Source: a virus
Length of the DNA: 30,523 nucleotides
Reading direction: 5' to 3' (one strand)
IMG/VR virus record: IMGVR_UViG_3300050821_010140
Coordinates: 1 to 30,523 of that record
This document shows, piece after piece, positions 5,209-21,522 of this stretch; position 1 is the first letter of the stretch; every line of letters begins with the position of its first letter. Both the position numbers and the translations under genes were made by a program. The notes beneath the pieces were generated by a model. The model was not told where the DNA came from, ran no database searches, and saw only the letters and a program-made list of their open reading frames with translations.

Positions 5209-5685
5209 ATGAGCGTTCTTCCGACCGATCTTGTTACATATGGCTCGCTGTCGATGCCGGGTTATGATGGCGCGACTCAGATCGCTACTGCTGCCATTGG
5301 TACGTCAACCACGGTGCCTATTACCTTTGCGGTGACCGCAAACGCGAGCTTCCCGCAGGTTGGCGAATTCGCCATTTTGATTGATTCCGAGATTCTGTGG
5401 GTAACGCAGGGAGCGGGTACCAATAACTGGACGGCCCTGCGCGGATATGGCGGCACGACGCCGGCAACGCATCTTCTCGCTGCGAACGTTACGTCTGTGT
5501 CAGGGGGCCCGGTGGATTTTACCACTCGTGTGGCTTTCTCTGATGTGACGGCTGGCGATTCTGTCGATATCGTTAGTTCGCTCGCGGCGGACAGCAAGAC
5601 GATTATATCGGTAGCTGGCCGCGATGTGCCTGGCAATTTTGTATCGGGGAAAACCGGCATCCTTGGCGGCGTCACGCCACAGTAG
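5209..5685 (+). CDS. N-terminal part of a split beta-repeat virion protein
   Basis: A 158-residue reading frame ending at TAG 5683-5685. It carries a beta module at about residues 25-100 with the pattern ANASFP--GEF-I-I-SE---VTQGAGTNNWT--RG. The same module begins the next frame (NANFPAAGNYYIKM, then GQGTNSWTISRG). The downstream frame has no start codon or ribosome site near its true beginning, and reading -1 at about 5677-5682 gives a smooth join (GGVTP then TVGIGAGQTFDRLL). I therefore read 5209-6743 as one 511-residue gene interrupted by a single-base loss or a frameshift. Role: probable tail-fibre or neck-fibre type protein. Confidence 0.55.
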   Translation: MSVLPTDLVTYGSLSMPGYDGATQIATAAIGTSTTVPITFAVTANASFPQVGEFAILIDSEILWVTQGAGTNNWTALRGYGGTTPATHLLAANVTSVSGGPVDFTTRVAFSDVTAGDSVDIVSSLAADSKTIISVAGRDVPGNFVSGKTGILGGVTPQ

Positions 5686-5759
5686 GCATTGGCGCCGGTC
5701 AGACTTTCGACCGTCTGCTGTACGTTGGTCTCGGTGCTGGCACTACGTCAACGGTCACG

Positions 5760-6743
5760 ATGACTAACGCGACCACGACATTGACGACTGCGGCCAATGC
5801 CAATTTTCCGGCAGCGGGCAATTATTATATCAAAATGGCAAATGAGTACATGCAGGTTACGGCCGGGCAGGGTACGAATTCCTGGACCATCTCCCGCGGC
5901 GTTCTAGGTAGTGTGGCCATCGCGCACGCATCCGGCGATAATATATACTTGGTGCCGTTTGGCGATGTTGCGATTTACGATCATACTCCAGTCCTTAGCG
6001 CCCGCACTATGCAAACCGGATCAGCTCAGTCGTCCGGTACAACTCCGGCTCTCGCCAAGCTTCAATCAGGCGATGGCGCCAGCTGCGCGATTGGCCAAAT
6101 TATCCGCACGACCGGCGGCACAGGACCTAATCAGATTCGATACATTACGGCAGTTCTCGGCTATGCGGCAGATCAGATCGCTGTTCATCGCGACTGGGAT
6201 ACGCTGCCCGATGCCACGACGACTTATTCGATCCTCAAGGGTTGGGTGCTCGAGTTCAAGGCGGGCGCAGGGGTTGGCGCGACGGTCAATAACCAAGTCA
6301 CCGCCATTCAACGCTCCATCTGGGGTGCCGCAGCTGACGTACCAACGGGGGCGCAAAGGATATTTTACGAAAAGGTGTTCCTGGTTAGTAACAACACTGT
6401 GACGGACTTTACTGGCGCCAACATACAGATATCTGGCGATGCGCCTGCATTGCCGGGTTCGGCCTTACTCGACATCGCAATGTGCAAAGCGGCCAATGAC
6501 ACATTTGCTGCGGTCAATCGTCAGACGCTGCCCACAAATGGCGATACGACAGCTTTGACGTTCGTTGCGCAGGGCAGCACTGGCAATCCAGTCAACGTAA
6601 TCGCCAACAGCGCTGCGCTAGTGCATGGCGCCGCGCCTAATGCGGCGGGCGCTCAGGGCGTGTGGATGCGCCTGACATTGCCGGCCGGTACCACAGCCTA
6701 CAAGGGCGCGGCGAACCTGCGGACGCAGGGCAACACCATCTAA
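5760..6743 (+). CDS. C-terminal part of the split beta-repeat virion protein
   Basis: A 327-residue frame from ATG 5760; homologous-looking sequence in the same frame extends upstream to about 5679 (VGIGAGQTFDRLLYVGLGAG) without any ATG, GTG or TTG. It begins with a second copy of the beta module seen in 5209-5685. A segment follows with TGSAQSSGTTPALAKLQSGD and IRTTGGTGPNQIRYITAV, a style of repeat common in phage tail-fibre proteins, and then a C-terminal beta domain. No signal peptide. If the break is real rather than a sequence error, this half may not be translated well, since no ribosome site precedes 5760. Confidence 0.55.
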   Translation: MTNATTTLTTAANANFPAAGNYYIKMANEYMQVTAGQGTNSWTISRGVLGSVAIAHASGDNIYLVPFGDVAIYDHTPVLSARTMQTGSAQSSGTTPALAKLQSGDGASCAIGQIIRTTGGTGPNQIRYITAVLGYAADQIAVHRDWDTLPDATTTYSILKGWVLEFKAGAGVGATVNNQVTAIQRSIWGAAADVPTGAQRIFYEKVFLVSNNTVTDFTGANIQISGDAPALPGSALLDIAMCKAANDTFAAVNRQTLPTNGDTTALTFVAQGSTGNPVNVIANSAALVHGAAPNAAGAQGVWMRLTLPAGTTAYKGAANLRTQGNTI

Positions 6744-7731: not shown

Positions 7732-8876
7732 TGCGCGGCTGGATTTTCCGCGGCGCATTATGTGCGCTGTTATTGACGATCGGATGGCGCGCATCTTTCG
7801 CCCAGCAGCCTCAGGCGGGGGGCGGTATTCCTGCTGTGATTCAGACCCCGATCGCCCTCACCGACGGCGCGACAATTACATTACCGTGCCCAACAGCGTA
7901 CTCCTCGGTTACGTATTATCTAACGCGGACGGGAATCAACGACCAGATTCTATTTCCCAATTGCCCGGCGTCCGCGAACGGTCTATCTGTCAAATTTAGG
8001 ATCAATGCGGGAAGCTCCCCATTTGGGGGGTTAACTTTTGCATCTGGTTTCAATTGGACTGGCGGCACTCCTTATGCGATTTGTACCGCGGCGGCCACTC
8101 CGAATCTTGCGTGTCCGGCAGCGGAAATTTCAAATCAAACAGACTGGTTTGGTTGTGACGTCGTAGGAGCGGCGTCAGCATCTACAGAGTGGGATTGTTG
8201 GCTCCCGCAATACAATGTTGGGGCTCCGCCAACTTGGGCCTTTGTAAATGCAGCTTCGTGCGCTTCGGCGAGCGGGCCGACTTGCACGACCGGCGCCGTC
8301 AACATGACTGGCGCAAATCTTATAGTGGTTGCAATTGCCTACGCCGGTGGCCCGACGCTTTCGGGGCCCACCGACAGCAGTTCTAATACATACACGTCCG
8401 CGGTATCATCTACAAATTCAAGTGCCGGTGTAATTTTAAATTGTTATTATGATTATGCTCCTACCGTCACTAGTTCAATGACGTTTTCGGCAAATTTCGG
8501 CGGAAGTGCGGTTGCCTATCCCGGAATATCTGTGGCGGGATTCTCTGGTGCAATTTCTTCTCCATTGGATCAAACGAACTCGGCGAACTCTGGCGCTACT
8601 GGCACCGCAACATCCCAACAGACTGGCTCCATTACTCCAGCACAGGCGAATGAATTGATAGTGGCTTGTCTAGGGATTGGGTCTAACGGAAACACCAGTT
8701 CTGGGATTAGCATTAATAATGGCTATGTGCTTGAGGCTCCGATTAATATCGTAGCGTCAACTAATGAGGGTTCGGGGTTAGGATACCTTATTCAAGGGGC
8801 CGCCGCCGCCACCAATCCAACGTTTAGCTGGGCCGGTGGCGCGTATGGTATAGCTGGCATTATGTCGTTCAAATGA
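7731..8876 (+). CDS. Exported Cys-rich protein with receptor-type beta domain
   Basis: Starts at ATG 7731 with AGGAG (7721-7725) 5 bases upstream; an in-frame start 30 bases earlier would spoil the signal. Residues 1-24 form a clear Sec signal (basic start, GALCALLLTIGW core, SFA before Gln25). The mature 357 residues hold about a dozen cysteines, as expected for a protein folded outside the cytoplasm. The C-terminal 200 residues (GANLIVVAIAYAGG, then strands ending AYGIAGIMSFK) match in pattern the whole 226-residue protein at 18300-18980, a fibre or receptor-type domain. A Sec signal on a gene inside a virion operon is odd. It may be a lysogenic surface protein rather than a virion part. 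Confidence 0.6.
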   Translation: MRGWIFRGALCALLLTIGWRASFAQQPQAGGGIPAVIQTPIALTDGATITLPCPTAYSSVTYYLTRTGINDQILFPNCPASANGLSVKFRINAGSSPFGGLTFASGFNWTGGTPYAICTAAATPNLACPAAEISNQTDWFGCDVVGAASASTEWDCWLPQYNVGAPPTWAFVNAASCASASGPTCTTGAVNMTGANLIVVAIAYAGGPTLSGPTDSSSNTYTSAVSSTNSSAGVILNCYYDYAPTVTSSMTFSANFGGSAVAYPGISVAGFSGAISSPLDQTNSANSGATGTATSQQTGSITPAQANELIVACLGIGSNGNTSSGISINNGYVLEAPINIVASTNEGSGLGYLIQGAAAATNPTFSWAGGAYGIAGIMSFK

Positions 8877-10501
8877 TCAAATACATTAGTGCAATTTGCC
8901 TCGTCATACTGCTCGCTGGTGTCGGCGTTGCGGTAGGGGCCACCAATGGCGGGATGCTTATAGGGGCGAGCTCATCGGCGTCGATTAAGTCTGCCTTGAT
9001 TTCATGCGGATCGTCCTGCGCATACACGAGCGGCGCCTCATCCGGCACGACAATCGGTAACGCCAGCGCGACGCTTTCATCCGGCACCTTCACTGGGACG
9101 TGGGGCACATCCGGCACCGCCGGGGCTGACTTTACCTTCTCAGGCGCTTCACTTCAGACGAACGGAGCGACGCCAACCTGCACGACAACGACGCCATTGA
9201 GCCTCAATATCGTCGCCACGCAGCCGGGGGCAGCAAAGCCTTTCCCGCAAGCCATTACGGTTACGTGCAATCCGATGGGCGTCAGCATCGCCTGCCCTGG
9301 CACTAGCCCCGATCCACAGTCGTCGAGAGATCATTATACCGCGGCGGTCTGGTGCTTCGACTTCAGTCAGTCCTCCGGAACTAGTCCCCCATGGAACGCT
9401 AGCAACTTAACCGCTTGCGATACTAGCAGTGGGTACTTTTTCGCTACTGGATGGCCTTTTAATGGTGGTGGTGGTACCTCGGGAGATGTAAATAACCAAT
9501 CCAGTCCATGCAGCCAATACGGGTTAGCCATCGATCCAATCGATGGCAAGCAAAGCTATCGGATGCACTTTATTGCCGGCGCATCGAATGATGATAATAG
9601 TAACGGGTATGGTCAAACACTTACCTCCGTAGGGTCGTGGGGGGCAACCTATGTCGAGATGACTTTCCGGGAAGACAGTACGCCCAAGCCGCCTGCTCCA
9701 ATGGACTTCACTCCGGGGTCCGCTTCGCCGCTCGCATGGGGAGGGATTACACATTTATACGAGAACGATCTCCTTGAAAATTTTTCGCTTAACGGCGATT
9801 GCTTTAACAACAATGATATTGGACGCACAGGTTACCCATGCGCTCATCTTTTCGACTGGTCGCAATATCACACAATCGCTAAACGCGTCACCTATGATCC
9901 CAGCAATGGCGGCACGGTTGGCTCTACAACGTACATCGACAATGTGCCGGTAACGACAAGCACCTGTCCTCATTGCAATCAAGCCCCTATCACCACTAAC
10001 ATGGGAGCGTATCAGAACAGCACTTGGTTCTTTCCCAATCAAATACACTGGTGCGCGACGGGCTCGGGTCATTGCCAAAACACATTCATCGTCGCCGCAT
10101 ATCAATGCACGGACGGCTCCGGCTTGACCTGCGTCGATTTCGGCGCGACCACCAGCGGAGTAACTTGGCAGGGCGGGAAAGTATGGATGCAAAACCAGCC
10201 GCCAGCATGCCCTCAGGTAGCGTACATCACTGGAGCGACTGGGATCACCCAGATAAACGGCTTGCACCAAGTCTGTGGCGATGCGGCTGGAGACAATCCG
10301 ACCCACACAGCAAAGATCAATGATTTGACGTGGCCGGGAGGTACGTACAATGCTAACTCGGCTGTGTGGAACCCGATGACTGACGAGAGCGCATATATCC
10401 GCAGCATCCGGATCTACGCTTGCCCCGGCTTCAATGTAAACAATTCAACGGACACCAGTTGCGTGCTGCCATCCGGGCAAGCCTTCGGGGGGGCGCCTTG
10501 A
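8873..10501 (+). CDS. Large exported Cys-rich protein, Ig-like plus lectin/glycanase-like part
   Basis: A 542-residue protein that overlaps its predecessor by ATGA. Residues 1-23 form a Sec signal (ISAICLVILLAGVGVAV, cleavage near VGA-Thr24). A short Ig-like domain follows at about 30-135 (ASATLSSGTFTGTW, then NIVATQPG), similar in pattern to Ig-like units of fibre A. The rest, about 150-520, is Trp-, Asn- and Cys-rich with strands such as GATYVEMTFRED and GGTVGSTTYIDNVPV, consistent with a concanavalin-type jelly roll of polysaccharide-binding or -cleaving proteins. I cannot name a catalytic pair. Likely periplasmic or surface-exposed; role unknown. A G7 run (10487-10493) lies just before the stop. 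Confidence 0.55.
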   Translation: MIKYISAICLVILLAGVGVAVGATNGGMLIGASSSASIKSALISCGSSCAYTSGASSGTTIGNASATLSSGTFTGTWGTSGTAGADFTFSGASLQTNGATPTCTTTTPLSLNIVATQPGAAKPFPQAITVTCNPMGVSIACPGTSPDPQSSRDHYTAAVWCFDFSQSSGTSPPWNASNLTACDTSSGYFFATGWPFNGGGGTSGDVNNQSSPCSQYGLAIDPIDGKQSYRMHFIAGASNDDNSNGYGQTLTSVGSWGATYVEMTFREDSTPKPPAPMDFTPGSASPLAWGGITHLYENDLLENFSLNGDCFNNNDIGRTGYPCAHLFDWSQYHTIAKRVTYDPSNGGTVGSTTYIDNVPVTTSTCPHCNQAPITTNMGAYQNSTWFFPNQIHWCATGSGHCQNTFIVAAYQCTDGSGLTCVDFGATTSGVTWQGGKVWMQNQPPACPQVAYITGATGITQINGLHQVCGDAAGDNPTHTAKINDLTWPGGTYNANSAVWNPMTDESAYIRSIRIYACPGFNVNNSTDTSCVLPSGQAFGGAP

Positions 10502-10576: not shown

Positions 10577-11536
10577 ATGTGGATACGCAGCCCCGCCTGG
10601 GATGGGTTTTGGCTGCTCAGCGGGGTGCCTCTGGCACTTGGGCTGTGGGCAACCTCGCCACCACCGATCACGACTTTCCTGTTCATTCTGGCGTTTCGCG
10701 TCGGACACCTTGCCGCGCCGGTGGCGTGCGCGTGGGACCACGAAGGCTTCCGCCGTTTGATGCTGCGCCGCAAGGTCGTGTTCATCGCTATTCCCGCGGC
10801 GCTGTTTCTAATCGCCGCAGCGATCTCCTTATCGGGAACGTTCGACCTTAGACACGACGACGATTTATATTTTCACTGGAGCCAGTTGAGAGTACCCGCG
10901 ATAGCCACTGCCGTCGTGTATATTGCTTGGAACCAATGGCACCTGGCGATGCAGAACTTCGGCGTTCTACGGTTGTACGCCGCCCGATCGCCATCTGGGC
11001 CAGCTTCCCGCACCATCGACAAGGCGGTTTGCTTCGGGGCGATAGGCTACTGGACGCTCGGGGCGGTGACGCATATGGATTTCGTGCCGATACCGAACCA
11101 GCTGTTGTTTGCCTACATCTCTTGCGCCGTTGGAGGTGTGCTGCTCACAGCTCTATTGTGGGGCGAGCGGTCGTGGCCTCGCATCATCTTCCTTGTGGGG
11201 GTGATTACCCCGGCGGTGCTCGCGAATTTCTCCTTTTTGTACGCATTCGCCGCGATATTGGTCAGCCACTGGCTCGTCGCAATCGGGCTGGCGGCAAACG
11301 TCGACGGCAACCATCACGCGCGCTCGCCGTTGTGGTTTGCCGGCTCGGTAATGATCTTCGGGGCGATCGTGGTGCTGCTGAGGCGCCATTTCGAAGTAAT
11401 CCTGGCGATGAATCTGGGGCTCTCGTTCGTGCATTATTGGTACGATCGGCGCTTGTGGAAACTGAGCGATCCCCAGGTGCGGGCGACGATCGGCAGAGAT
11501 TTATTTGGGTCTCCGCGGCTTCGCTTAGTGGCGTAA
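10577..11536 (+). CDS. Polytopic membrane protein with conserved-looking histidines
   Basis: A 319-residue protein with about eight hydrophobic helices (roughly 11-27, 31-50, 67-87, 104-123, 148-165, 175-196, 201-240, 252-290). Histidines lie at helix ends: H44, H122 in NQWHLAMQNFG, H231, H246-H247, and H286 in HYWYDRRLWKLSDPQ. This WH--Q-xG and HYW-D--xWK pattern is seen in uncharacterised bacterial membrane proteins and recalls, more distantly, Brp/Blh-type or other His-dependent membrane oxygenases; that link is inference. It has no obvious virion role and is the clearest cargo gene of the cassette. It follows the 24-residue membrane peptide by one base and abuts the next gene (TAA then ATG). 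Confidence 0.65.
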   Translation: MWIRSPAWDGFWLLSGVPLALGLWATSPPPITTFLFILAFRVGHLAAPVACAWDHEGFRRLMLRRKVVFIAIPAALFLIAAAISLSGTFDLRHDDDLYFHWSQLRVPAIATAVVYIAWNQWHLAMQNFGVLRLYAARSPSGPASRTIDKAVCFGAIGYWTLGAVTHMDFVPIPNQLLFAYISCAVGGVLLTALLWGERSWPRIIFLVGVITPAVLANFSFLYAFAAILVSHWLVAIGLAANVDGNHHARSPLWFAGSVMIFGAIVVLLRRHFEVILAMNLGLSFVHYWYDRRLWKLSDPQVRATIGRDLFGSPRLRLVA

Positions 11537-12052
11537 ATGGCGGTAGTGATCTATTCGGTAAATGACGGGTCGATTAGGCGCATCATAGTGCCGGACACCG
11601 ATGCTCAGGCGCAGGCATTCATTTCGGCTGTGGTTCTTGGAGAGGCCGCTCTCACACTTACCGGTCCGTCTGACCTGGCGTCATGTCAGGCGGCCGTTCA
11701 AGCTGTCCGCGGCGTGCCAAGCGCGAGTGGCCGATGCGTGGTGGTAAGTGCTGGCGTAGTTGTAGATACGTACATGGGCGACCCAAAGATCGATACCCAT
11801 CCCCGCGGACAGCTCGTCTCGAGCGATGACGGCATAATTACCGATCATTATGACGGGACGCAACTCACTCGCCAGATGGTGATAGTCAATCAGCAGACCT
11901 CCAGGGTTGTCAATATCATCTTTCTGCCTTTGAAGGCTAATCCGGGCGCCGGAAATGTAATGTATCCATTTACAACTCCTCCATTTTCTCCGACGTTACA
12001 AAGGGGAGATGTAGTTGTTATTAGCACTGGTCCACCTGCTACGGTGACATGA
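11537..12052 (+). CDS. Unknown cassette protein upstream of fibre A
   Basis: A 171-residue soluble protein starting immediately after the stop of the membrane protein and overlapping fibre A by ATGA. It has a mixed alpha/beta N-terminal half, a middle segment GDPKIDTHPRGQLVSSDDG and a strand-rich end (LQRGDVVVISTG). Not recognised. Its coupling to the fibre gene suggests a fibre-linked role such as a connector or chaperone, but nothing in the sequence proves it. Confidence 0.45.
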   Translation: MAVVIYSVNDGSIRRIIVPDTDAQAQAFISAVVLGEAALTLTGPSDLASCQAAVQAVRGVPSASGRCVVVSAGVVVDTYMGDPKIDTHPRGQLVSSDDGIITDHYDGTQLTRQMVIVNQQTSRVVNIIFLPLKANPGAGNVMYPFTTPPFSPTLQRGDVVVISTGPPATVT

Positions 12053-12951
12053 CTCAGGTCTTCATTCTCAGCGGTGGCTGGAATGTTCCTACCGATTGGA
12101 CAAGCACTAATACAGTCGAGGCTATTGCTGGCGGCGGAGCTGGCGCTGGCGGCAATGTAGGCGGTGGCGGCGGCGGCGCTGAGTATCGGAAATCGAGCAA
12201 TATCACAGCGGCCAGCTTAGGCGGTATTGGCGCGTCCGTTCCTATATCGGTCGGCGCCGGAGGCATATGCGCTAGCGGCACAACGAATGGCAATGCCGGC
12301 GCACCAACAACCTTCAATTCGTCAACCATCGTCGCCCAACCTGGCGGCGGTGGGAATGCCGGAACCGGCGGCGCTGGTGGATCCGGCGGCACCGGCACCG
12401 TAGGAAATAACGGCGGCCCCGGCGCGAACAACGTTTCCAACTCCGAGGCCGGAGGCGGCGGTGCCGGCGGCCCTAACGGAGTGGGCGCTATTGGAGGCGG
12501 GGGTGCCGGCTTCGGCGCTGGAGCTGGCGGGGGCGCCGCGAGTGGCGGATCATTTGGCGGCGACGATCAGGGCGGCGGGGTAGGCGGTCTTGGCGGAGCG
12601 GCATTCGATGCTACTGCTGGCGGTACGGCGGGGGGGTCTTCTGGCGGGGCTGGCGGAGCCGGTTCGCATGGGTCCGGCGGCGGCGGCGGCGGGACCAGCG
12701 GTACCGGCGTAGCCGGTGCCGGTGGCGCTGGCGGCTTCGGAATAGAATGGGATGCGTCGCATGGAGCCGGTGGTGGCGGTGGTGGGGGGGGGGTCGGCAT
12801 CGGCGTTCGACAAATACCGGAGGCGTCGGCGGAAATTACGGCGGCGGCGGCGGTGCCGGTGGTTATGCCGGTAGCGGACAAGCTGCCGGTGGCGCCGGCG
12901 CGCAGGGCATCATCGTCATTACCTACACGCCCTCGGCCGGGGGAGCGCTAA
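12049..12951 (+). CDS. Fibre A, N-terminal glycine-rich domain (frame broken at a G10 tract)
   Basis: The first 240 or so residues are a glycine-rich tail-fibre domain: a short strand start (QVFILSGGWNVPTDWTSTNT), then long Gly/Ala/Ser loops. The domain's expected ending (GAGAQGIIVITYTP) is absent from this frame but present in the -1 frame of the next entry, right after ten G at 12784-12793. Past the tract this frame yields an Ala/Pro/Arg-rich tail to 12951 that looks non-natural. Hence 12049-15653 is best read as one fibre gene of about 1201 residues. The out-of-frame state as given would produce a 300-residue short form. Confidence 0.7.
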   Translation: MTQVFILSGGWNVPTDWTSTNTVEAIAGGGAGAGGNVGGGGGGAEYRKSSNITAASLGGIGASVPISVGAGGICASGTTNGNAGAPTTFNSSTIVAQPGGGGNAGTGGAGGSGGTGTVGNNGGPGANNVSNSEAGGGGAGGPNGVGAIGGGGAGFGAGAGGGAASGGSFGGDDQGGGVGGLGGAAFDATAGGTAGGSSGGAGGAGSHGSGGGGGGTSGTGVAGAGGAGGFGIEWDASHGAGGGGGGGGVGIGVRQIPEASAEITAAAAVPVVMPVADKLPVAPARRASSSLPTRPRPGER

Positions 12952-15653
12952 CGGTAAATGCCGCCCTAGCGATCGACTGGCGTGCAACGCAACAGCAAAA
13001 CACAGCGACGCTGGTTGATTGGCGTGCAACGCGGTTGGCCAATGCCGCTCTATTGCTTTCATGGCTTGCCCTGCAGCGTGGCGATACTTCGTTAATTATC
13101 GAGGAGATTGCATCTGAACGTATAGACGCGAGCGCGGTAACCGAGTTCAAGGGTGGCATCGCCATCACGCATAACGATGGTATGCCGATAGAATTCTTGG
13201 GCACCGCCGCCATCACGCACAACGATGGTTTACTAATCGATTTTGTGACTTTGTTGACGTCTGGCTGGCCGGCGTTACTCCAATGGGCGTCGTTTACGCT
13301 GCCGCCGCCAGCGGCGCAAAGCGTCGTTCGGCGCGCTCTAAAGGCGGCCGGCGCACAGGCTGGCAGAACTATCTATCGTCGTATGTTTCTCGGCGTGCCG
13401 GCTACCGCTATACAGGCTAATCAGAGGGTTGTGGTTGAGTGGCTATCGCAGGTCAAATCAAGCGAAGCTATTACCATAACGGCGCAACCGATTATCACCA
13501 TTAATCCATCATCGCCTCAAATAGCCGACACTACCCCAAAGGGCAGCGTAGTAGCCACGTATACGATTACAATGAGCGACGGATCGCCGTTCACCGGAAC
13601 GATCGGGTTTGGGCCACCGAATTTCGACAATGGCGGGGTCTTTGCGCTCGTTGTCATTACGCTGTCAACTGGGCAAATCATTGTAAACCCGAATGGGCCG
13701 GGAGTTGGCCCAAACCCGATCACGATTACCGATCATATTACGTTGGTAGCTACAGCTCAGAACTTTCCTTTGACCCTAATAGAAATATTGTCTGCGCAGC
13801 GTCAAGATGTGGGCCTTCCGGTTGAGGAGATTGCTCGGCAAGGCAACAATATTGCTGGTCAGTTTTCGGGTCAGTTTGAATGGGTCGCCGCCGCTCGCGC
13901 GGACGCCGGGGCGCCATTCTCTGCGTTAGCCACCCAAACAAGCATGATGGCCGCCCCTATCACGGCCCAGCCAATCATCAATATTAATCCGACGACGCCT
14001 CAGTTGCCCGATACGAGCCCAAGAGGAACTGTAGTTGCGACGTACACGATTACAATGAGTGATTCATCGCCGTTCGTCGGCACAGTCACATTCGGGCCGC
14101 CTAATTTCGACGGCGGCGGCGTGTTCGCCTTGGTTGCGACGACATCGTCGACTGGGAATATTATTGTCAGCCTGACAGGGCCCGGCGTTGGGCCGAATAT
14201 GACAACGATTACCGACCTCATTACGCTAGTAGCTACGAGCAATGATCCGGGCGGATCGTTGATTGAGTGGGTTGCATCGCTTGCTAACAATGGCGCGCTG
14301 GTAGTCGAAAGTTTGCCGACGAGGCGGTCGGATACGCTATCGTTTACAGAATGGACAGGAGGCATCGGGGTTTTCCATAGCGATGGGTTGCCGGTTGAAT
14401 TAACCGCTGCGTTGCGCTTGGATGGGTTGGCCGTTAAAGAGTTTATTGCAACTCAGCAGAGGAATGCGCCGATTTCCATCGAAGTCTCTAGCGTGCAGCG
14501 ACGAGACATGCCCGCATTAGGCGAGACATTAGCGACAGATAGGCAAGATATCGCTCTATATGGCGAAGCTGTCGCGAGTGAAAATGCAGTCGCTGCGGTC
14601 TCGGTAGAAGGGAGTCCCACGCAGCGGCAAGACGCGTCGCCACTAAGCGAGATCATCGCGACGACACTACAAAGCGTTGGTGCGCCAGATGAGTTTTATG
14701 TCGGTGAACGTCAAGATACGCAGTGGCCAATTGAAACTGCCGCGGGACTACAGCAAAACACCAGCACTTCCCTACCGCTAGAATCGTTGGCTACAGAGCG
14801 TATCGATGCGCCAACTCAAGCTGAACTTTTCTCGGCGGAGCTGTCTGATACCTCTGTGCTGTCGGAAACGACTTCGATGCAGAAAAGGGAAGATGCCCCG
14901 CTACCGATGGAGTCGACGTCCCTCGAGCTAGTCAATACCCCTGCGGCAAGCGAATTTTCGTCGGTGATACAGCGGGACGGTTTGGGTATAAATACCGAGA
15001 CGTTGAGCGCGCAGCGAGTAGACATTTCCGCTCCAGCGGACACCAGCTCGGCGCTACTGACGAATGCGCCGGCAATGCAAGAGACGATTACCAACGCTCG
15101 CGTTGATGTGTCTGCGCCGGAAGAAGCAATCGCCAGCGCTCGCATCGATGTTCCTGGAGCCCAAGAAACTATTGCCAATGTCCGTATTGACGCGACCGCG
15201 GCGCAAGAGGCTATTACGAGTGCCCGCATCGATGCGTTTGTGTTGGCTGACATCTTGTCTGGTGGCCGGATTGATCGCGTGTGCTTCTTGGATTTCACTA
15301 GCGCGCAGCGCGTCGATGCGCCGCCATCTAATATAGAATGGTTTGCCGCTTTTCGGATCAACGGCACATTGCCGATTGAGCTAATCGCCATCATTCGCAC
15401 TGACCAGCGAGACCTCGCCGAGTGGATCCTGTCTACCGGCACGCATCTGACAACCGATGCGGCCGCGCTAATAGAATGGCTTGCGACGCCTGGTTTTAGG
15501 CTGGGTCTAGACAGCGGATTAGTTATTGAATGGCAAGGGGCGCCCGTGCCGGGGCCCGGTCAGGTTATTGTTGCGAGTCTACCTAACGTATTAGCGACTC
15601 CGGCATTCCAGGCCACACAGGCGCCCAGTGACATTAAACCAAAGAGCGGTTGA
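12747..15653 (+). CDS. Fibre A, main body: 14-residue repeats and two Ig-like domains
   Basis: The frame is open from 12747; meaningful sequence starts at the G10 tract (12784) with the end of the glycine-rich domain (GAGAQGIIVITYTP). The body then has: degenerate 14-residue repeats (about 12955-13245), two 288-base Ig-like units (13476-13763 and 13959-14246) separated by more repeats, and some 25-30 tandem 14-residue repeats (14256-15545) of consensus x-x-E-x-[LI]-A-x-x-R-x-D-x-x-x. The C-terminal end (APVPGPGQ, then IKPKSG) matches the end of fibre B (LPVPGIGQ, then LTPKKG). No signal peptide or cysteines of note. Probable long tail or neck fibre; receptor unknown. The nominal start at 12747 is unlikely to be used. 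Confidence 0.7.
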   Translation: MGCVAWSRWWRWWGGGRHRRSTNTGGVGGNYGGGGGAGGYAGSGQAAGGAGAQGIIVITYTPSAGGALTVNAALAIDWRATQQQNTATLVDWRATRLANAALLLSWLALQRGDTSLIIEEIASERIDASAVTEFKGGIAITHNDGMPIEFLGTAAITHNDGLLIDFVTLLTSGWPALLQWASFTLPPPAAQSVVRRALKAAGAQAGRTIYRRMFLGVPATAIQANQRVVVEWLSQVKSSEAITITAQPIITINPSSPQIADTTPKGSVVATYTITMSDGSPFTGTIGFGPPNFDNGGVFALVVITLSTGQIIVNPNGPGVGPNPITITDHITLVATAQNFPLTLIEILSAQRQDVGLPVEEIARQGNNIAGQFSGQFEWVAAARADAGAPFSALATQTSMMAAPITAQPIININPTTPQLPDTSPRGTVVATYTITMSDSSPFVGTVTFGPPNFDGGGVFALVATTSSTGNIIVSLTGPGVGPNMTTITDLITLVATSNDPGGSLIEWVASLANNGALVVESLPTRRSDTLSFTEWTGGIGVFHSDGLPVELTAALRLDGLAVKEFIATQQRNAPISIEVSSVQRRDMPALGETLATDRQDIALYGEAVASENAVAAVSVEGSPTQRQDASPLSEIIATTLQSVGAPDEFYVGERQDTQWPIETAAGLQQNTSTSLPLESLATERIDAPTQAELFSAELSDTSVLSETTSMQKREDAPLPMESTSLELVNTPAASEFSSVIQRDGLGINTETLSAQRVDISAPADTSSALLTNAPAMQETITNARVDVSAPEEAIASARIDVPGAQETIANVRIDATAAQEAITSARIDAFVLADILSGGRIDRVCFLDFTSAQRVDAPPSNIEWFAAFRINGTLPIELIAIIRTDQRDLAEWILSTGTHLTTDAAALIEWLATPGFRLGLDSGLVIEWQGAPVPGPGQVIVASLPNVLATPAFQATQAPSDIKPKSG
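12784..12793 (+). repeat. G10 homopolymer in fibre A
   Basis: Ten consecutive G, flanked by T on both sides, located exactly where the glycine-rich domain leaves one frame and continues in the -1 frame. Eight or eleven G would put the two halves in one frame. Such tracts change length by strand slippage and can cause transcript or ribosome slippage, but they are also frequent sites of sequencing error. Confidence 0.85.
13476..13763 (+). repeat. Ig-like domain, copy 1
   Basis: A 96-residue unit in fibre A beginning ITAQPIITINPSSPQ and containing GSVVATYTITMSDGSPF, GPPNFDNGGVFAL and a final ITLVATAQN strand. The second copy at 13959 has the same length with many silent base changes, so the duplication is old. 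Pattern of a cadherin/Ig-like beta-sandwich. Confidence 0.75.
13959..14246 (+). repeat. Ig-like domain, copy 2
   Basis: Second 288-base copy, ITAQPIININPTTPQ to LVATSND, about 70 percent identical in protein by eye to copy 1. A more distant copy ends the exported protein at 15982-16785 (SDGSPFTGGLSFVPP). Confidence 0.75.
14256..15545 (+). repeat. Tandem 14-residue repeat array in fibre A
   Basis: About 30 degenerate units of roughly 42 bases. The clearest four lie at 15075-15242: MQETITNARVDVSA, PEEAIASARIDVPG, AQETIANVRIDATA, AQEAITSARIDAFV. Codons differ between units although residues agree, so the periodicity is kept by selection on protein rather than by recent DNA duplication. Fibre B has the same repeat type. 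Confidence 0.8.
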
Positions 15654-15662
15654 GCGTATCGC

Positions 15663-15992
15663 ATGTCAAGATTAAGTCGAGATTTCGATCCGGTAGAGCC
15701 AACCACAAAACGATGGTTCTACATTGATTTTGGTCCGGAATTGGCGTCCCTGCCAGCAAACGAAATTATTCAGGTAGCAAGCTTCACATGCTCTGTAGTG
15801 CGCGGCGTTGATCCTGCGCCGCAGTCTCATGTTTTGTCTCAGGTGGCAATAGTAGGATCAGCAATTGGGGCGTTTTGTGGGAATTTCCTTCCTGGTGTGA
15901 CGTATTCGCTCGAGGCGACGGCGTCCACAAGTGCGGGGAATATATTGCCAAATAATGCTAGGTTGTATTGTCAGGGGCCAAATGATTTATAA
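15663..15992 (+). CDS. Small protein after fibre A, possible fibre-tail adaptor
   Basis: A 109-residue protein with an N-terminal polar stretch (DFDPVEPTTKRWFYIDFG) and strands ending GVTYSLEATASTSAGN. Size and layout resemble small adaptor proteins that fix fibres to tails, which are often encoded next to the fibre gene; the similarity is only moderate. It overlaps the next gene by 11 bases and has no signal peptide. Confidence 0.45.
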   Translation: MSRLSRDFDPVEPTTKRWFYIDFGPELASLPANEIIQVASFTCSVVRGVDPAPQSHVLSQVAIVGSAIGAFCGNFLPGVTYSLEATASTSAGNILPNNARLYCQGPNDL

Positions 15993-16785
15993 ACTTCTGT
16001 TCTGCGCTGTGGCGCTCTTTCCATCTCTGGCTGGCGCCCAAACGCCACTAACGATTTTTGGCAACGCGACGCCGGTCACTGCTGTTGATCCGGATACGAA
16101 CGCCGTGACGCTCGGGGTTAAATTCTTTTCCAACGTTGGCGGCGCCATTTCCGGCATCCGCTTTTACCGCGGCCACACAAATACGAGCGGCTACACGGTA
16201 AAACTCTTTACGGTTACGGGCTCGCTGCTCGCCTCGGCCCGCGTGCGAAACGAGACCTGCACTCCACTCCCGTGCTGGGAGCATGTGAATTTTGCGTCGC
16301 CGATCTCTCTATCTGCTCAAACCACGTATATCGCGGCGTATTACACGTCAAACGGGCGTTATGCGGGCGACAATAACGGGCTGGTAAACGGGGCCGGAGC
16401 AGCTCCACTTTACGCGCAGATGTGCGGCGGCAGTGCCGGCGGCAATGGCGTCTATACATATTCGACCGGCTTCCCGAACCAGACCTATCAATGTTCAAAT
16501 TACTGGGTGGATGTTGAATTCACACCAAACGCGCCGACCCTAATGATGAGCTTCAATCCACCTAATCCGACGATCGATTCAACCTCGCCGCCTGGGACGG
16601 TAATTGCTGCTGTAGTCCCATCATGGAGCGATGGAAGTCCCTTCACTGGGGGCCTTTCATTCGTTCCACCGTATGGAAACGATAATGGCCTTGTGGCTTT
16701 GAACGGATCAAATGTCGTCGTGAACGGCGATTTCTCCGGGCTTTCTAACACTACCCAAAATGCAACGGTGGACGCGACTCAATGA
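15982..16785 (+). CDS. Exported DUF4082-like protein with C-terminal Ig-like domain
   Basis: Start ATG 15982 (inside the end of the previous gene) gives a 19-residue Sec signal (MIYKLLFCAVALFPSLAGA before Gln20). Residues about 20-175 fit the DUF4082 pattern: TLGVKFFSNVGGAISGIRFY, YTVKLFTVTGSLLASA, WEHVNFASPISLSAQTTYIA, then GFPNQTYQCSNYWVDVEF. That domain usually occurs in extracellular or wall-associated proteins with fibronectin-like repeats. Residues about 183-267 form an Ig-like unit akin to those in fibre A. Upstream ATG or GTG choices in this frame would bury the signal. Likely secreted or surface-attached; binding role inferred. Confidence 0.65.
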   Translation: MIYKLLFCAVALFPSLAGAQTPLTIFGNATPVTAVDPDTNAVTLGVKFFSNVGGAISGIRFYRGHTNTSGYTVKLFTVTGSLLASARVRNETCTPLPCWEHVNFASPISLSAQTTYIAAYYTSNGRYAGDNNGLVNGAGAAPLYAQMCGGSAGGNGVYTYSTGFPNQTYQCSNYWVDVEFTPNAPTLMMSFNPPNPTIDSTSPPGTVIAAVVPSWSDGSPFTGGLSFVPPYGNDNGLVALNGSNVVVNGDFSGLSNTTQNATVDATQ

Positions 16786-18299
16786 ATTATCCTCGCGCTA
16801 CGATATTGGTAGTGTCGTGTTTCGTCTCGACGATTGCGTTTGCCGCCTCGGTATCTAAAAATCTTGGCATCCTCGTCACTCACGGCGGCGACTCATTGCC
16901 GCCCGGCGTTACTCTCTCCGCGATCGACGGCGAGACGATGACTGGGACCGTCATGAGTCACAATTATTATGCCAGGAATGGATTTACCAACGCTGCCTCG
17001 TCAACCTTTAACTCCTCATACAATAACGGGGGTTGGGACGATCCGAGGTTCTTTCCGATCGGCGATGACTATTTATGGAGCTACGCGACGACATCGGCGA
17101 TTCAGTCCCTTAATATGAATTTGTCGTTTCGTGTACTGTCGGGCGACATGACGGCGCTTCGGACGGCCGGGATTTATGCATCTCCAGAGGAGCCGGCATC
17201 GTCATTTACCAACATGGGCGCCGAATCGATGGGATGGGCGCTAGACGAACCGCCCGATTGGGCGACGATATCGAGTTTTCTGGCGGCGGACGGCATCGAT
17301 AAAGTCCAGCATGTGAATTTCACATGGAATCAGTTTGTCTTTGGGCCGCCTAGCGGAACGCCCGGCGGCACAATGGGCGCCGCCATGTCAGACCAAGTTG
17401 CGGCGACCGGCGGAAATACGCACATCCACACGTCATCAGTCGACATTTATTGGTTTGCCGGCTCGACCTTGGGAAGCCTATGTCAAGGGGGCTCGCCGCC
17501 TTGGGCAGGAGGGTACATCTATAGCGGCGCCACGGGCCCTAATTGCAGCGGCATCATAACGGAGCTGAGCGCGGACCAGACAGCGCGCGGCGACCATTAC
17601 GGCGACATGGTTGATCAAGAGCGTGCGTGGTTGGCGACGGTCCCGGGGACGAGCACGGCAGTGCAGCCTGTTGCGGGCCCCTATATCGAAAACTGCGACG
17701 GATTCGTCAACGGCGGCACCTCGGCCCACATCATCACCCCGCCGGAGTTCAATTGGGCCGTGTGGAGTACGATCCTGCATGGCTCTCGGGAGTTGCTTTA
17801 CTTTGGCGCGACGCCCCAGGACTCAGCGTGCGGCTTTCCCGCTACGGGCGGGTTTCCCCCGGCCATTCAGACCGGGCAGTCAGTAGCGATGACGACGCAG
17901 GCGACCAACAGCAACGGCGAAGTTTTGAATTTGGCCCCAATCATCAACAGTCCGTTCGCGATCGGCTACGCCTCGGTCACGCCGGTCGGGTATGTCTTCC
18001 CGACGCAGAACCTAAGTCTGACCAACGGCATCGACATCATGGCCAAGTGGTACACTGGGGGGCCTTATTCCAACTCCACCGGCTCGTTCGGCAACGGGTT
18101 TTATATTTTTACGACAGTGCGCGGATCCGAAACACAGTCCAATATCAACGCAACTTTCACGCTCGCCGGCTCTCCGACGAAGAGCAATATCCCGGTTGTC
18201 GGCGAAGGTCGGACGGTGAATATCGCAAGTGGGCAATTCACCGATACATTTGCGAATGCCTACGCGGTGCACATCTATGGGCCGATTTCGTATCCGTAG
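16782..18299 (+). CDS. Exported protein, possible TIM-barrel glycoside hydrolase
   Basis: A 505-residue protein coupled to its predecessor by ATGA. Residues 1-21 form a Sec signal (ILVVSCFVSTIAFA). The core, about 28-400, has barrel-like strands ending in acidic or aromatic residues: GWALDEPPDW (151-160), VDIYWFAG (220-227), GPYIENCDGF (299-308), PPEFNWAVWSTILHGSRELLY (320-340). This order recalls glycoside-hydrolase barrels in which the second Glu lies near the end of a late strand. The C-terminal 100 residues look like a beta-sandwich (YIFTTVRGSE onwards). Glu156 and Glu303 are candidate catalytic residues (inference). It could cut host envelope or capsule glycans; no exact family is recognised. 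Confidence 0.5.
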   Translation: MNYPRATILVVSCFVSTIAFAASVSKNLGILVTHGGDSLPPGVTLSAIDGETMTGTVMSHNYYARNGFTNAASSTFNSSYNNGGWDDPRFFPIGDDYLWSYATTSAIQSLNMNLSFRVLSGDMTALRTAGIYASPEEPASSFTNMGAESMGWALDEPPDWATISSFLAADGIDKVQHVNFTWNQFVFGPPSGTPGGTMGAAMSDQVAATGGNTHIHTSSVDIYWFAGSTLGSLCQGGSPPWAGGYIYSGATGPNCSGIITELSADQTARGDHYGDMVDQERAWLATVPGTSTAVQPVAGPYIENCDGFVNGGTSAHIITPPEFNWAVWSTILHGSRELLYFGATPQDSACGFPATGGFPPAIQTGQSVAMTTQATNSNGEVLNLAPIINSPFAIGYASVTPVGYVFPTQNLSLTNGIDIMAKWYTGGPYSNSTGSFGNGFYIFTTVRGSETQSNINATFTLAGSPTKSNIPVVGEGRTVNIASGQFTDTFANAYAVHIYGPISYP

Positions 18300-18980
18300 A
18301 TGGCTTTCGCCTTCGTTAAATCTGCCAAGGGAACTTCTGCGACGACGGTTACGACCCCGGCATTTGGTAGCGCCACTACGTCGGGCAATCTGATCGTTCT
18401 GGCCTACACATCGGACGCCTACAACGCAGCTCCCGATACCGGGTGGACGCAATCGACCGGGATGAGCCAGCACACCAACTGCGGTGGCTATATCTGGTGG
18501 AAACTTTCAACGGGGGAGACGACGGAGCCAAGCTATTCGATAGGGTCGGCCACCAACTCCTCTTGGGTACTGGCCGAGTTCAGCGGCAATGATGCGACAA
18601 CACCCTATGACATCTCGAATGGGCAGAATCAAATATCGTCCGTCAGCTCGTATACCACCCCGAGCATAATTCCCACTACCGGCTCGCGATTGCTGGTGGC
18701 AATGATCGGCGGGTCACGATCCACCGCTCTCACTGGGGCAACGCCGTACACGTCGTGGCTGAATAGCCTGACCAGGATCGATGATATATTTTCGACCGGC
18801 ACAGGAACTAATGATGTTGTCGGGATCGCCTACAGGGCCGTTACCGGCGATGGGGTGACGGGGTTTTCATCCGGGGCGACTACCGGCGGACCTACGCTTA
18901 TGGAGGCGGAGGTTGGCCTCATCATAGCGTTCAAGGCATCGGCGGCGGCGGACGTTCTAATGGCACAGGCCTGTTTATGA
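18300..18980 (+). CDS. Receptor-type beta domain protein
   Basis: A 226-residue protein with no signal peptide, starting right after the stop of the previous gene. Its pattern (SGNLIVLAYTSDAY, then SSWVLAEFSGNDATTPYD, IPTTGSRLLVAMIG, VGLIIAFKA) equals the C-terminal domain of the exported protein at 7731-8876 (GANLIVVAIAYA, SVAGFSGAISSPLD, ANELIVACLGIG, YGIAGIMSFK). The same fold therefore appears once as an apparent virion protein and once behind a Sec signal. It probably binds a surface ligand. Overlaps the next gene by ATGA. Confidence 0.5.
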   Translation: MAFAFVKSAKGTSATTVTTPAFGSATTSGNLIVLAYTSDAYNAAPDTGWTQSTGMSQHTNCGGYIWWKLSTGETTEPSYSIGSATNSSWVLAEFSGNDATTPYDISNGQNQISSVSSYTTPSIIPTTGSRLLVAMIGGSRSTALTGATPYTSWLNSLTRIDDIFSTGTGTNDVVGIAYRAVTGDGVTGFSSGATTGGPTLMEAEVGLIIAFKASAAADVLMAQACL

Positions 18981-19333
18981 AGTCTCAGCGCGAAGGCTAT
19001 CTTTTTGTCGACCATCGGGCTTCGCCTGGACTTGATCCTGCGATGGCGCGGCGGATGGGATACGCTCCGGAGACCGTCGCAGAAGGAACGATGTTCGAAA
19101 CCGCAACTTTGACGTGTCAGCATTGCGGTGACGTTTTTATCAAAAATCCCGAGCGGACACGGCCTCGCGAGAACTGTGCGAAGTGTGGCAATTTGTATAT
19201 CTGTGATCATTGCTCGGCAGAGATGCGGCATCCTGACTACATTCATCGGCCGATGATTAGAAAGATCGACGAAACCTTGAATGCGGCAGCGAAAAATCTT
19301 GATCAATTTCTCCCTCTTCAGTTGAAAAGGTAA
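18977..19333 (+). CDS. Small zinc-ribbon protein
   Basis: A 118-residue protein. Three CxxC pairs lie close together: CQHCGDVF, CAKCGNLY and CDHC, which would bind one or two zinc ions in a ribbon or treble-clef arrangement. The N terminus (GYLFVDHRASPGLDP) and the ETATLTCQHC lead-in are of a kind I associate with small proteins in rhizobial phage tail clusters; that is memory of family style, not a search. It may be a structural adaptor rather than a DNA-binding regulator, since it sits among fibre genes. Helical C terminus. Confidence 0.6.
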   Translation: MKSQREGYLFVDHRASPGLDPAMARRMGYAPETVAEGTMFETATLTCQHCGDVFIKNPERTRPRENCAKCGNLYICDHCSAEMRHPDYIHRPMIRKIDETLNAAAKNLDQFLPLQLKR

Positions 19334-19339
19334 CGTGCC

Positions 19340-19855
19340 GTGGCTAAAAGACTTTTCACCGCTGTAAACTGGACACCAGGCACTGTTGCCGATGGCTCAG
19401 CGCTCGCGAGCAATACTTACATGGCCCTCAAGGGCGGCAGCACGACGCAGTTTATTGATGTGCTGGAGGTTGAGGCTTCTGGAATGGCGGGCGCCTCGAA
19501 TCCAACCCCATTAACGCTAGCACGCGCCGGGACCACGGAAACGACACCGACTGCGCTTGCCAACCCAAATGCTGACGGCCCGATGAATCCTTTTACGGTC
19601 GCGCTAACTGCGGCTCCGGTATCGTTTGTCGCCGCCGCAACCGGGCCGACTAGATCGGCTCTCGTTACTGATGCCAGATTAAACCTCGGCATCAATGCCT
19701 TTGGCGGTATCATCCGGTGGAATGCCTCGCCTACTCAGCAATGGCAGATTTATGGTAATTCGACGACTCTGCCTGGTGGCCTATCAGTCTTGTCTAACCA
19801 AGCATATGGAACACCAGGTCTTGTGCAGGCCCATATTATGTATGAACCGATGTGA
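19340..19855 (+). CDS. Unknown beta-rich virion protein, 171 aa
   Basis: Starts at GTG 19340 with AAAAGG (19325-19330) 9 bases upstream, and ends overlapping fibre B by GTGA. The sequence is Ala/Thr/Gly-rich with short strands (FIDVLEVEASG, TDARLNLGINAFGGIIRWN, AHIMYEP) and no cysteine. Coupled to fibre B, so a base or adaptor for that fibre is a reasonable guess. No family recognised. Confidence 0.45.
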   Translation: MAKRLFTAVNWTPGTVADGSALASNTYMALKGGSTTQFIDVLEVEASGMAGASNPTPLTLARAGTTETTPTALANPNADGPMNPFTVALTAAPVSFVAAATGPTRSALVTDARLNLGINAFGGIIRWNASPTQQWQIYGNSTTLPGGLSVLSNQAYGTPGLVQAHIMYEPM

Positions 19856-21522
19856 CGCTTAGATCTCCTACATACAAGACTAGATGGGAGCAGGACCCTG
19901 CCGGCATATCGCGGCGAAGTCAGGACTTCTTTCGGAATAACCTTCTGCTGAATGTCTTGGCGGGGAAAGATCAATTTCTGCCGCGCAATAGGATTCAATT
20001 AGGCCGAGATCCGGATCCGGCAAAGCAGCCCGATCGGTTTTGGAGTCAAAATCTTGTTCTGACGACACTTAATGGAAAGGATCTTAGTCCGTTCAATCAA
20101 TTCGATTGGCCGCTGCCGAAGGCGCCGACTCAGCCGAATCGTACTTGGTTGCAAAGTCTGGTCTCGACAACTCTTAATGGTCGGGATGCGACGCCAGCAA
20201 ATCAGTACGATTGGCCTTTACCGAAAGCGGCAATTCAGCCATCACGCTTTTATTCCTGGACGGGCCAAACATCGACCCTTCCTTCTGGGATTGTTCCGTT
20301 TGCTCTGTTCGATTGGCCCTTGCCGAATGTCGCCTTCCAACCTTCTCGCTGGTATTCGTGGTCGGGACAGGAGTCGACGCTACCATCCGGCGCGCAACCG
20401 TTTCCTCAGTTGGATTGGCCTCTGCCGAAGGCACCTTTGCAGCCGGACCGCTTTTGGTCGCAGAATCTTGTCGTAACGACACTTAACGGACAAGATCTTC
20501 GGCCTCCCGGCGCCGTCGCGCTTGATCTTCCGAAGATGGCGGCGCAGCCAGATCGGACTTGGGTGTGGCCGACTCCGCTGTATTATTTGGCTGGAACGCC
20601 GCTTCTTATATTATTTGAAAGCCTTTTGGTTGATTGGTCGGCAGCGCAGTTCGAAGGTCAAGGGCTTCTTGCTGAGTCTCTTGCTACTACGCGCGGCGAA
20701 GGGACGTCGCTGATTGATTGGCCGACACGGCAGGTTGGAGACGCTGGCGCTCTTACTGAATGGGCCGCCCTTGCTCGGCGAGACGATGCGGCCTTAGTTG
20801 AGTCTTTCGCAGCGCAGCGTCTGGACTCTGGTTTGTCGGCAGATTGGCTAGCTGGTGCTAGGCTTGATTTGCCGTCTCTTGAAGATTGGCTGGCGGCTGG
20901 CCGAGCGGATTGGCTGGCGCTCGCTGAGTTTTCTATCTTACAGCGGATTGATGTTGCGGGATTGATTGAATGGCTGCTCGGCCAGCGTAGTGAGTCAGCT
21001 GAGCTGTTGGAGTGGTCTGGCTCTGTTGGGGTAATATACAATGCTCTTCTCGCTATTGAGTCGCTATCTCTGCTTCGTCCTGATGTTGGTGTGTCATTTG
21101 TTGAGTGGCTAAGTGGGTGGCGTCAAGACGGTGGTTTGCTAGGCGAGCTCCTCGCCGGGCAGCGAGCAGACTATGCATCGCTCAATGAAGGGCTTACGAG
21201 AGGGCAATCCGACATTCCCTCGCTCGCGGAATGGGTGTCAGGGCTGTTGGCAGACCAGCGCGCCACAACGGAATTGACGTCTCGGATATTGGAGCAGCTT
21301 GGTGCGCCGGCAGAGTGGATAGCGTCTAGCGGCGTGCAGCTTATTGGTAATGAGGGATTGCCTATTGAGTGGCTCGGAACTTTCGGCACATTATTACGGG
21401 GCGACGCTGGACTGCCATTAGAATTTCGCGCGTTGCCAGTACCTGGGATCGGTCAGTTTGTTCGAGTCTCTCCAAATGTCGTTTTGCTTGTGCCGGGGGA
21501 TTTGACACCTAAAAAGGGATAA
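19852..21522 (+). CDS. Fibre B: DWPLPKA repeats followed by 14-residue repeats
   Basis: A 556-residue protein starting at GTG 19852 inside the previous stop. The N-terminal half (residues about 16-239) has six or so units of 33-37 residues, with DWPLPKA-xQPxR, W or Y, then TTLNGxD or STLPSG. The C-terminal half (about 256-520) is made of about 18 units of 14 residues, x-x-E-W-L-A-x-x-R-x-D-x-x-x, the same repeat type as fibre A but with Trp instead of a small residue after Glu. The final 35 residues (LPVPGIGQFVRVSPNV, LTPKKG) match the end of fibre A. No signal or cysteine. Probable second fibre; function beyond that unknown. Confidence 0.65.
   Translation: MTLRSPTYKTRWEQDPAGISRRSQDFFRNNLLLNVLAGKDQFLPRNRIQLGRDPDPAKQPDRFWSQNLVLTTLNGKDLSPFNQFDWPLPKAPTQPNRTWLQSLVSTTLNGRDATPANQYDWPLPKAAIQPSRFYSWTGQTSTLPSGIVPFALFDWPLPNVAFQPSRWYSWSGQESTLPSGAQPFPQLDWPLPKAPLQPDRFWSQNLVVTTLNGQDLRPPGAVALDLPKMAAQPDRTWVWPTPLYYLAGTPLLILFESLLVDWSAAQFEGQGLLAESLATTRGEGTSLIDWPTRQVGDAGALTEWAALARRDDAALVESFAAQRLDSGLSADWLAGARLDLPSLEDWLAAGRADWLALAEFSILQRIDVAGLIEWLLGQRSESAELLEWSGSVGVIYNALLAIESLSLLRPDVGVSFVEWLSGWRQDGGLLGELLAGQRADYASLNEGLTRGQSDIPSLAEWVSGLLADQRATTELTSRILEQLGAPAEWIASSGVQLIGNEGLPIEWLGTFGTLLRGDAGLPLEFRALPVPGIGQFVRVSPNVVLLVPGDLTPKKG
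20002..20568 (+). repeat. DWPLPKA repeat block of fibre B
   Basis: Five to six units of 33-37 residues. Two sub-types alternate: one with FWSQNLVxTTLNGxDL (first, second and fifth) and one with YSWxGQxSTLPSG (third and fourth). Units share key residues but differ in codons. Confidence 0.75.
20617..21410 (+). repeat. 14-residue repeat block of fibre B
   Basis: About 18 tandem units, for example LTEWAALARRDDAA, LEDWLAAGRADWLA, LIEWLLGQRSESAE, FVEWLSGWRQDGGL. Shares its periodicity and the E...R-x-D framework with fibre A. Confidence 0.8.

What the first reader, a model, noticed from the sequence alone, without database searches (positions are those of the whole stretch)
14256..21410. An undescribed-looking 14-residue repeat family in two fibres
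About 30 units in fibre A and 18 in fibre B follow x-x-E-x-[LIW]-[AS]-x-x-R-x-D-x-x-x. Codons vary while residues persist, and the two proteins otherwise differ in N-terminal design but share their last 35 or so residues. The E...R-x-D spacing could form a ladder of salt bridges in a beta-solenoid or triple-stranded shaft. I know no named family with this unit.
Basis: partly seen in the sequence, partly recalled or inferred. Interest (0 to 1): 0.75.

Follow-up and report, generated by a model that had tools for sequence, protein, structure and literature searches.

The report
Unnamed 14-residue phage fibre repeat
Two fibre-like proteins of an uncultured phage contain long tandem arrays of an unnamed 14-amino-acid repeat that recurs in at least nine other uncultured phage contigs, nearly always just before a tail-fibre adaptor gene, so it is probably an interchangeable tail-fibre shaft; its three-dimensional fold is unknown.

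Summary
Fibre A carries about 29-34 units and fibre B about 13-17, against 1-2 in shuffled sequence, mostly spaced exactly 14 residues. Consensus: [LAS]-[PL]-[IVA]-[ED]-[WFL]-L-[AS]-x-[QL]-R-x-[DN]-x-x. Codons are randomised. No Pfam, PHROG, NCBIfam or PDB match; none in isolated phages or plasmids.

The repeat is not private to this phage. Degenerate scans of IMG/VR plus a profile trained only on this phage and one near relative found arrays in nine further contigs: 154 units in 12 proteins overall. N-terminal domains differ. In all nine loci where the downstream gene is readable, a Gp77-like 'fiber-tail adaptor' follows or is fused. One locus lies just behind a Baseplate_J gene. Best reading: an exchangeable tail-fibre shaft docked by its C-terminus to the adaptor.

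Fibre A really begins at 12049: its frame is broken at a G10 tract, while three relatives read through in one frame. Fibre B is the exception: its array is fused to a different repeat family, sits in a head-side cassette and has no adaptor behind it, but shares A's C-terminus.

Salt-bridge ladder and beta fold remain unsupported: AlphaFold was low-confidence and helical. New variant of a known kind.

The parts
12049..12793 (+). Glycine-rich N-terminal part of fibre A (ORF 12049-12951 up to the frame break at the G10 tract)
   Evidence: after the G10 run the Gly-rich reading (GAQGIIVITYTP) continues in the 12747 frame. L047, L056 and L041 encode Gly-rich plus 14-residue array in one frame.
12784..12793 (+). 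G10 homopolymer where the fibre A frame is broken (a -1 step joins the two ORFs)
   Evidence: Only homopolymer of 8 or more in the window.
12747..15653 (+). Fibre A main ORF (968 aa as listed from ATG 12747): end of Gly-rich domain, 14-residue arrays, two Ig-like modules, C-terminal tail
12966..13133 (+). First array block of fibre A (4 units)
13773..13910 (+). Short array block of fibre A (3 units) between the two Ig-like modules
14256..15410 (+). Main array of fibre A (about 24 units)
   Evidence: profile A7 hits up to E 2.2e-17.
15465..15653 (+). C-terminal tail of fibre A, homologous to that of fibre B; proposed docking end
   Evidence: Local alignment score 114 against shuffled maximum 50.
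15663..15992 (+). Gp77-like (PF23148) putative fibre-tail adaptor, 109 aa
   Evidence: Weak direct Pfam hit, 17.1 bits against cut-off 27; homologous to the adaptor in L079 (tblastn E 8e-14), which passes the cut-off at 31.8 bits.
5209..6743 (+). Two ORFs (5209-5685, 5760-6743), one ORF in L063, conserved upstream of array fibres in other phages
   Evidence: ORF 5760 is 50-58% identical in L041, L052, L056, L063, L079.
19852..21522 (+). Fibre B (556 aa): N-terminal ~35-residue 'DWPLPK' repeats, then 14-residue array, then shared C-terminus
20623..21411 (+). 14-residue array of fibre B (13-17 units)
   Evidence: homologue L006 lacks exactly one 14-residue unit.
18977..19855 (+). Small Zn-finger-like ORF (18977-19333) and jelly-roll-like ORF (19340-19855) that travel with the DWPLPK repeat protein
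   Evidence: Homologues of both in 11 contigs besides the window; AlphaFold pTM 0.74 for ORF 19340, jelly-roll matches of middling Z.

Best explanation
The 14-residue array is an exchangeable shaft (spacer) module of phage tail fibres. The array protein's conserved C-terminal end docks on the virion through the small Gp77-like adaptor encoded just behind it, while the variable N-terminal domain (glycine-rich in fibre A, other folds in relatives) is carried outwards to meet the host or its surroundings. Arrays change length in whole 14-residue steps while E4, R10 and D12 are kept, presumably because they hold neighbouring units or chains together. Fibre B is a second protein in which the array joins a different N-terminal repeat family to nearly the same C-terminal tail, so it may use the same dock. 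Shown: array, family, gene order, one adaptor fusion, a one-unit length difference. Inferred: virion location, C-terminus-inwards polarity, shaft function, role of the charged residues.
For: Arrays at 13-34 units per fibre against 0-2 expected. Nine further contigs found by degenerate scans; a profile trained only on A, B and L006 scores eight of the nine at E<=0.01 (best 2.6e-13), against 0 of 12 'DWPLPK' records and 3 of 38 chance records, best 8e-4. The ninth (L041) scores 1.9e-6 with the broader profile. In all nine loci with readable downstream DNA (window A, L034, L047, L056, L063, L079, L080, L081, and L082 as a fusion) a Gp77-like gene follows or is fused to the array; L063, L079 and L080 adaptors pass Pfam's cut-off (68, 31.8, 28.8 bits). 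In L063 the fibre lies a few genes behind Baseplate_J (148 bits). Gp77-like genes of isolated phages lie among minor tail proteins. L006 lacks exactly one unit. A and B share their C-terminus.
Against: In the window the fibres lie between head and neck genes, not behind the baseplate, and fibre B has no adaptor next to it. The window's own adaptor candidate is below Pfam's cut-off. The 'fiber-tail adaptor' function comes from a Pfam name; the source paper was not in the library. No confident fold: AlphaFold pLDDT 63, pTM 0.28. No experimental data; host unknown.
Confidence: 0.66

Rival explanations
1. Capsid (head) fibres or decoration proteins: the arrays project from the head, as the position of the window genes among head and neck genes suggests.
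For: Fibre B's N-terminal repeat family and its two companion genes lie between the major head protein and tail tubular A in podovirus-like contigs L008 and L017 and on the head side in this contractile-tail phage, so they do not follow tail type. The companion 19340 ORF is predicted as a jelly roll, with middling matches that include phage cement proteins.
Against: The arrays themselves occur with Gp77-like adaptors and, in L063, behind a baseplate gene. None of 12 'DWPLPK' relatives other than L006 carries an array.
Confidence: 0.16
2. The array is a flexible, largely disordered, acidic spacer rather than a folded shaft.
For: Low-confidence AlphaFold model; Ala/Pro/Gly-rich positions 13, 14, 1 and 2; no clear amphipathic moment.
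Against: Strong conservation of E4, D12, R10 and small residue 7 across 154 units from 12 proteins, with exact 14 spacing, is hard to explain for a disordered linker; W, L and I are frequent at positions 5 and 6.
Confidence: 0.13
3. The repeat is a remote form of a known trimeric beta fold (YadA-like 14-residue left-handed beta-roll, or triple beta-spiral).
For: Same period as the YadA/BpaC beta-roll; fibrous context.
Against: The defining conserved Gly at position 8 (PMC9543794) is absent: Gly never exceeds about 17% at any position. No sequence match in the PDB. AlphaFold gave no strands, at low confidence.
Confidence: 0.12

Closest known systems
Gp77 family (PF23148, 'Podophage GP4 fiber-tail adaptor protein gp77')
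   Same: The gene right behind, or fused to, the array protein belongs to or resembles this family in nine of nine readable loci.
   Different: This is the proposed partner; it contains no 14-residue repeat.
YadA-like left-handed parallel beta-roll of trimeric autotransporters (BpaC, PMC9543794)
   Same: Tandem units of 14 residues in a surface adhesin; units thought to be gained and lost whole.
   Different: Lacks the conserved Gly at position 8; conserved residues here are E4, R10 and D12; phage gene context.
Viral shaft repeats such as the adenovirus triple beta-spiral (about 15 residues, from general knowledge) and the phi29 head-fibre helix-turn-helix repeat (both cited within PMC12796354)
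   Same: Short-repeat fibrous shafts of viral attachment proteins.
   Different: Different period or motif; fold of the present repeat unknown.
Gly_rich_2 (PF21722) glycine-rich domain
   Same: N-terminal domain of fibre A and of the L047, L056 and L041 array proteins looks alike.
   Different: Only a sub-threshold hit (L056, 17.7 bits against 24.3).

Membership tests
YadA-like 14-residue left-handed beta-roll | 14-residue periodicity | tested here: met
   99 of the unit spacings in 12 proteins are exactly 14.
YadA-like 14-residue left-handed beta-roll | Invariant Gly at position 8 of the unit (PMC9543794) | tested here: not met
   No position reaches 20% Gly in 154 units.
Any Pfam, PHROG, NCBIfam or PDB repeat family | Sequence match to the arrays | tested here: not met
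   No significant hit to the array parts; profile A7 against PDB sequences: nothing at E<=10.
Adaptor-linked phage tail fibres | Gp77-like adaptor gene next to the fibre gene | tested here: met
   Nine of nine readable loci; three adaptors above the Pfam cut-off. Window adaptor itself below the cut-off. Fibre B: no adjacent adaptor.
Adaptor-linked phage tail fibres | Physical presence on the tail | not testable with these tools
   Needs virion proteomics or microscopy.
   AlphaFold2 monomer pLDDT 63, pTM 0.28, helical trace; hydrophobic moments at 100 and 170 degrees both non-significant. Trimer prediction not available.

The most novel reading that the evidence does not exclude
The E-x-L-[AS]-x-x-R-x-D 14-residue unit defines a previously unknown fibrous fold used as an exchangeable shaft by diverse uncultured phages, attached by its C-terminus so that the N-terminal domain points outwards.
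Probability: 0.3. Interest if true: 0.65.

Novelty: new variant of a known kind. Interest (0 to 1): 0.48.

Why it matters
Tail-fibre shafts and tips decide phage host range, and fibres of uncultured phages are mostly unannotated. A recognisable 14-residue unit plus an adjacent adaptor gene gives a handle for finding fibre genes in metagenomic phages, and a small, regular, acidic repeat with one nearly invariant charge pattern is a tractable target for solving a possibly new fibrous fold.

Tried and rejected
Searches of isolated phages with A, B, the L063 and L034 arrays and a synthetic consensus gave no true relative: the consensus hit to BUCT552 lies on the strand opposite the annotated gene, the Vibrio phage hit covers features annotated as CRISPR spacers, and Oceanospirillum phage GJ44 has its own 14-residue TPADAVPVQSSAQA repeat that the profiles do not match. 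Plasmids gave no convincing match. Both genome-contig scans found nothing by exact 8-mers, and no host-genome centre was available for profile searches, so absence from bacterial genomes is not shown. A pattern with two EW units gave only chance hits. The first alignment was too diverse to scan with. Covariation: only R10-D12 stands out (z 4.9), which truncated units could also explain. My initial 'head fibre' reading of both proteins was dropped for fibre A after the adaptor and baseplate synteny appeared. A fold search was not run on the low-confidence array model. Papers: no description of this repeat or of the Gp77 structure found in the open library.

Full report
OBSERVATION. The window is a 30,523-base virus record, classed as linear and probably a fragment. 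An iterated 14-residue profile finds 34 units in fibre A and 17 in fibre B, against 1.8 and 1.0 in shuffled sequence; a stricter cut-off gives 29 and 13. E4 and D12 are nearly invariant, R10 and a small residue at 7 are strong, and codons at conserved positions are randomised. TRF finds no DNA tandem repeat. The two proteins share their last ~75 residues. In the one near homologue of B (L006, 76% identical) exactly one 14-residue unit is missing, and most amino-acid change lies in the array.

CORRECTIONS TO THE INTERVAL. A's array starts at 12966 and is interrupted by two copies of an Ig-like module; a third copy of that module is in ORF 15931. A's N-terminus is the glycine-rich ORF 12049-12951: the Gly-rich reading passes from one frame to the other at the G10 run 12784-12793, the only homopolymer of 8 or more in the window. 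L047, L056 and L041 carry Gly-rich domain plus array in one frame. Whether G10 is an assembly error, a variable tract or a programmed -1 site cannot be told here.

A FAMILY. No library or PDB match to the arrays and none in 50,697 phage or 72,556 plasmid records. Protein-based scans of IMG/VR found only L006 and a short contig, L005, whose fibre B is identical. Degenerate DNA patterns for two consecutive units, filtered by profile, gave nine further contigs: L034, L036, L038, L041, L047, L048, L052, L056, L063. As a cross-check, profile A3, built only from A, B and L006, scores eight of these nine records at E<=0.01, best 2.6e-13; controls gave 0 of 12 and 3 of 38, best 8e-4. L056 alone scored within the noise with A3 (0.0015) but its synteny matches; L041 scores 1.9e-6 with the broader profile A7, which has no L041 row. 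The whole set has 154 units in 12 proteins. These scans demand exact degenerate matches, so the family is probably larger.

GENE ORDER. In all nine loci where the DNA behind the array can be read (window A, L034, L047, L056, L063, L036/L079, L048/L080, L052/L081, L038/L082) a small protein of, or like, Pfam PF23148 (Gp77, fibre-tail adaptor) is encoded shortly behind it; in L038 it is fused to the array. L063, L079 and L080 pass the curated cut-off; L047 just misses; the window's ORF 15663 is weak by itself but homologous to the L079 protein. Six loci, the window included, also share the ORF 5760 gene. L063 places all this a few genes behind Baseplate_J. In isolated phages Gp77-like genes sit among minor tail proteins. 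This makes fibre A a tail-fibre gene by association, although in the window it lies between head-tail adaptor (4219) and neck genes (22 kb) of a contractile-tail phage.

FIBRE B. Its N-terminal half consists of ~35-residue 'DWPLPK' repeats, a separate family in at least 12 other contigs, usually preceded by homologues of ORFs 18977 and 19340. In L008 and L017 that cassette lies between major head protein and tail tubular A. ORF 19340 is predicted as a jelly roll (pTM 0.74) with middling matches to virus jelly rolls and phage cement proteins, which is not diagnostic. Fibre B may therefore be a head-side or neck-side protein that acquired the array; its C-terminus nevertheless matches A's.

MECHANISM. 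Conserved C-terminus plus C-terminal adaptor fusion, against variable N-termini, suggests attachment by the C-terminus with the N-terminal domain distal. This polarity is inference. The array would set the reach of the fibre in 14-residue steps. How units pack is open: AlphaFold2 of nine units is low-confidence and helical, hydrophobic moments favour neither helix nor strand, Pro is concentrated at positions 2, 13 and 14. The salt-bridge ladder is neither shown nor excluded.

NOVELTY. The YadA-like 14-residue beta-roll was considered and fails on its invariant glycine. No named family was found. Fibre shafts built from short repeats are a known kind; this unit appears to be a new variant.

Noticed in passing
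window 12784-12793: G10 tract breaks fibre A's reading frame between its Gly-rich and array parts; relatives read through in one frame. Error, variable tract or frameshift site.
   Followed up: partly
window 19852-20601; L007-L018: Separate ~35-residue 'PFNQ-DWPLPK...TW...L...TL' repeat family, up to 1214 aa in one protein (L014), no Pfam or PHROG hit, in at least 12 other contigs of different tail types.
   Followed up: partly
window 18977-19855: Zn-finger-like ORF and jelly-roll-like ORF that travel with the DWPLPK repeat protein in head-side positions; possible capsid cement or decoration cassette.
   Followed up: partly
window 5209-6743: ORF pair without named family; ORF 5760 is 50-58% identical in five other array-bearing contigs, and the pair is fused into one ORF in L063.
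   Followed up: partly
window 10577-11536: Hydrophobic, membrane-protein-like ORF (319 aa, no Pfam or PHROG hit) inside the structural gene cluster.
   Followed up: no
window 8873-10501 and 16782-18299: ORFs with signal-peptide-like N-termini inside the structural cluster, no Pfam or PHROG match.
   Followed up: no
window 15931-16785: DUF4082 (E 2e-38) followed by a copy of the Ig-like module that is duplicated in fibre A.
   Followed up: partly
L021 2401-4077 (Oceanospirillum phage GJ44): Annotated discoidin-domain protein has its own 14-residue TPADAVPVQSSAQA repeat; not matched by the family profiles, possibly convergent.
   Followed up: partly
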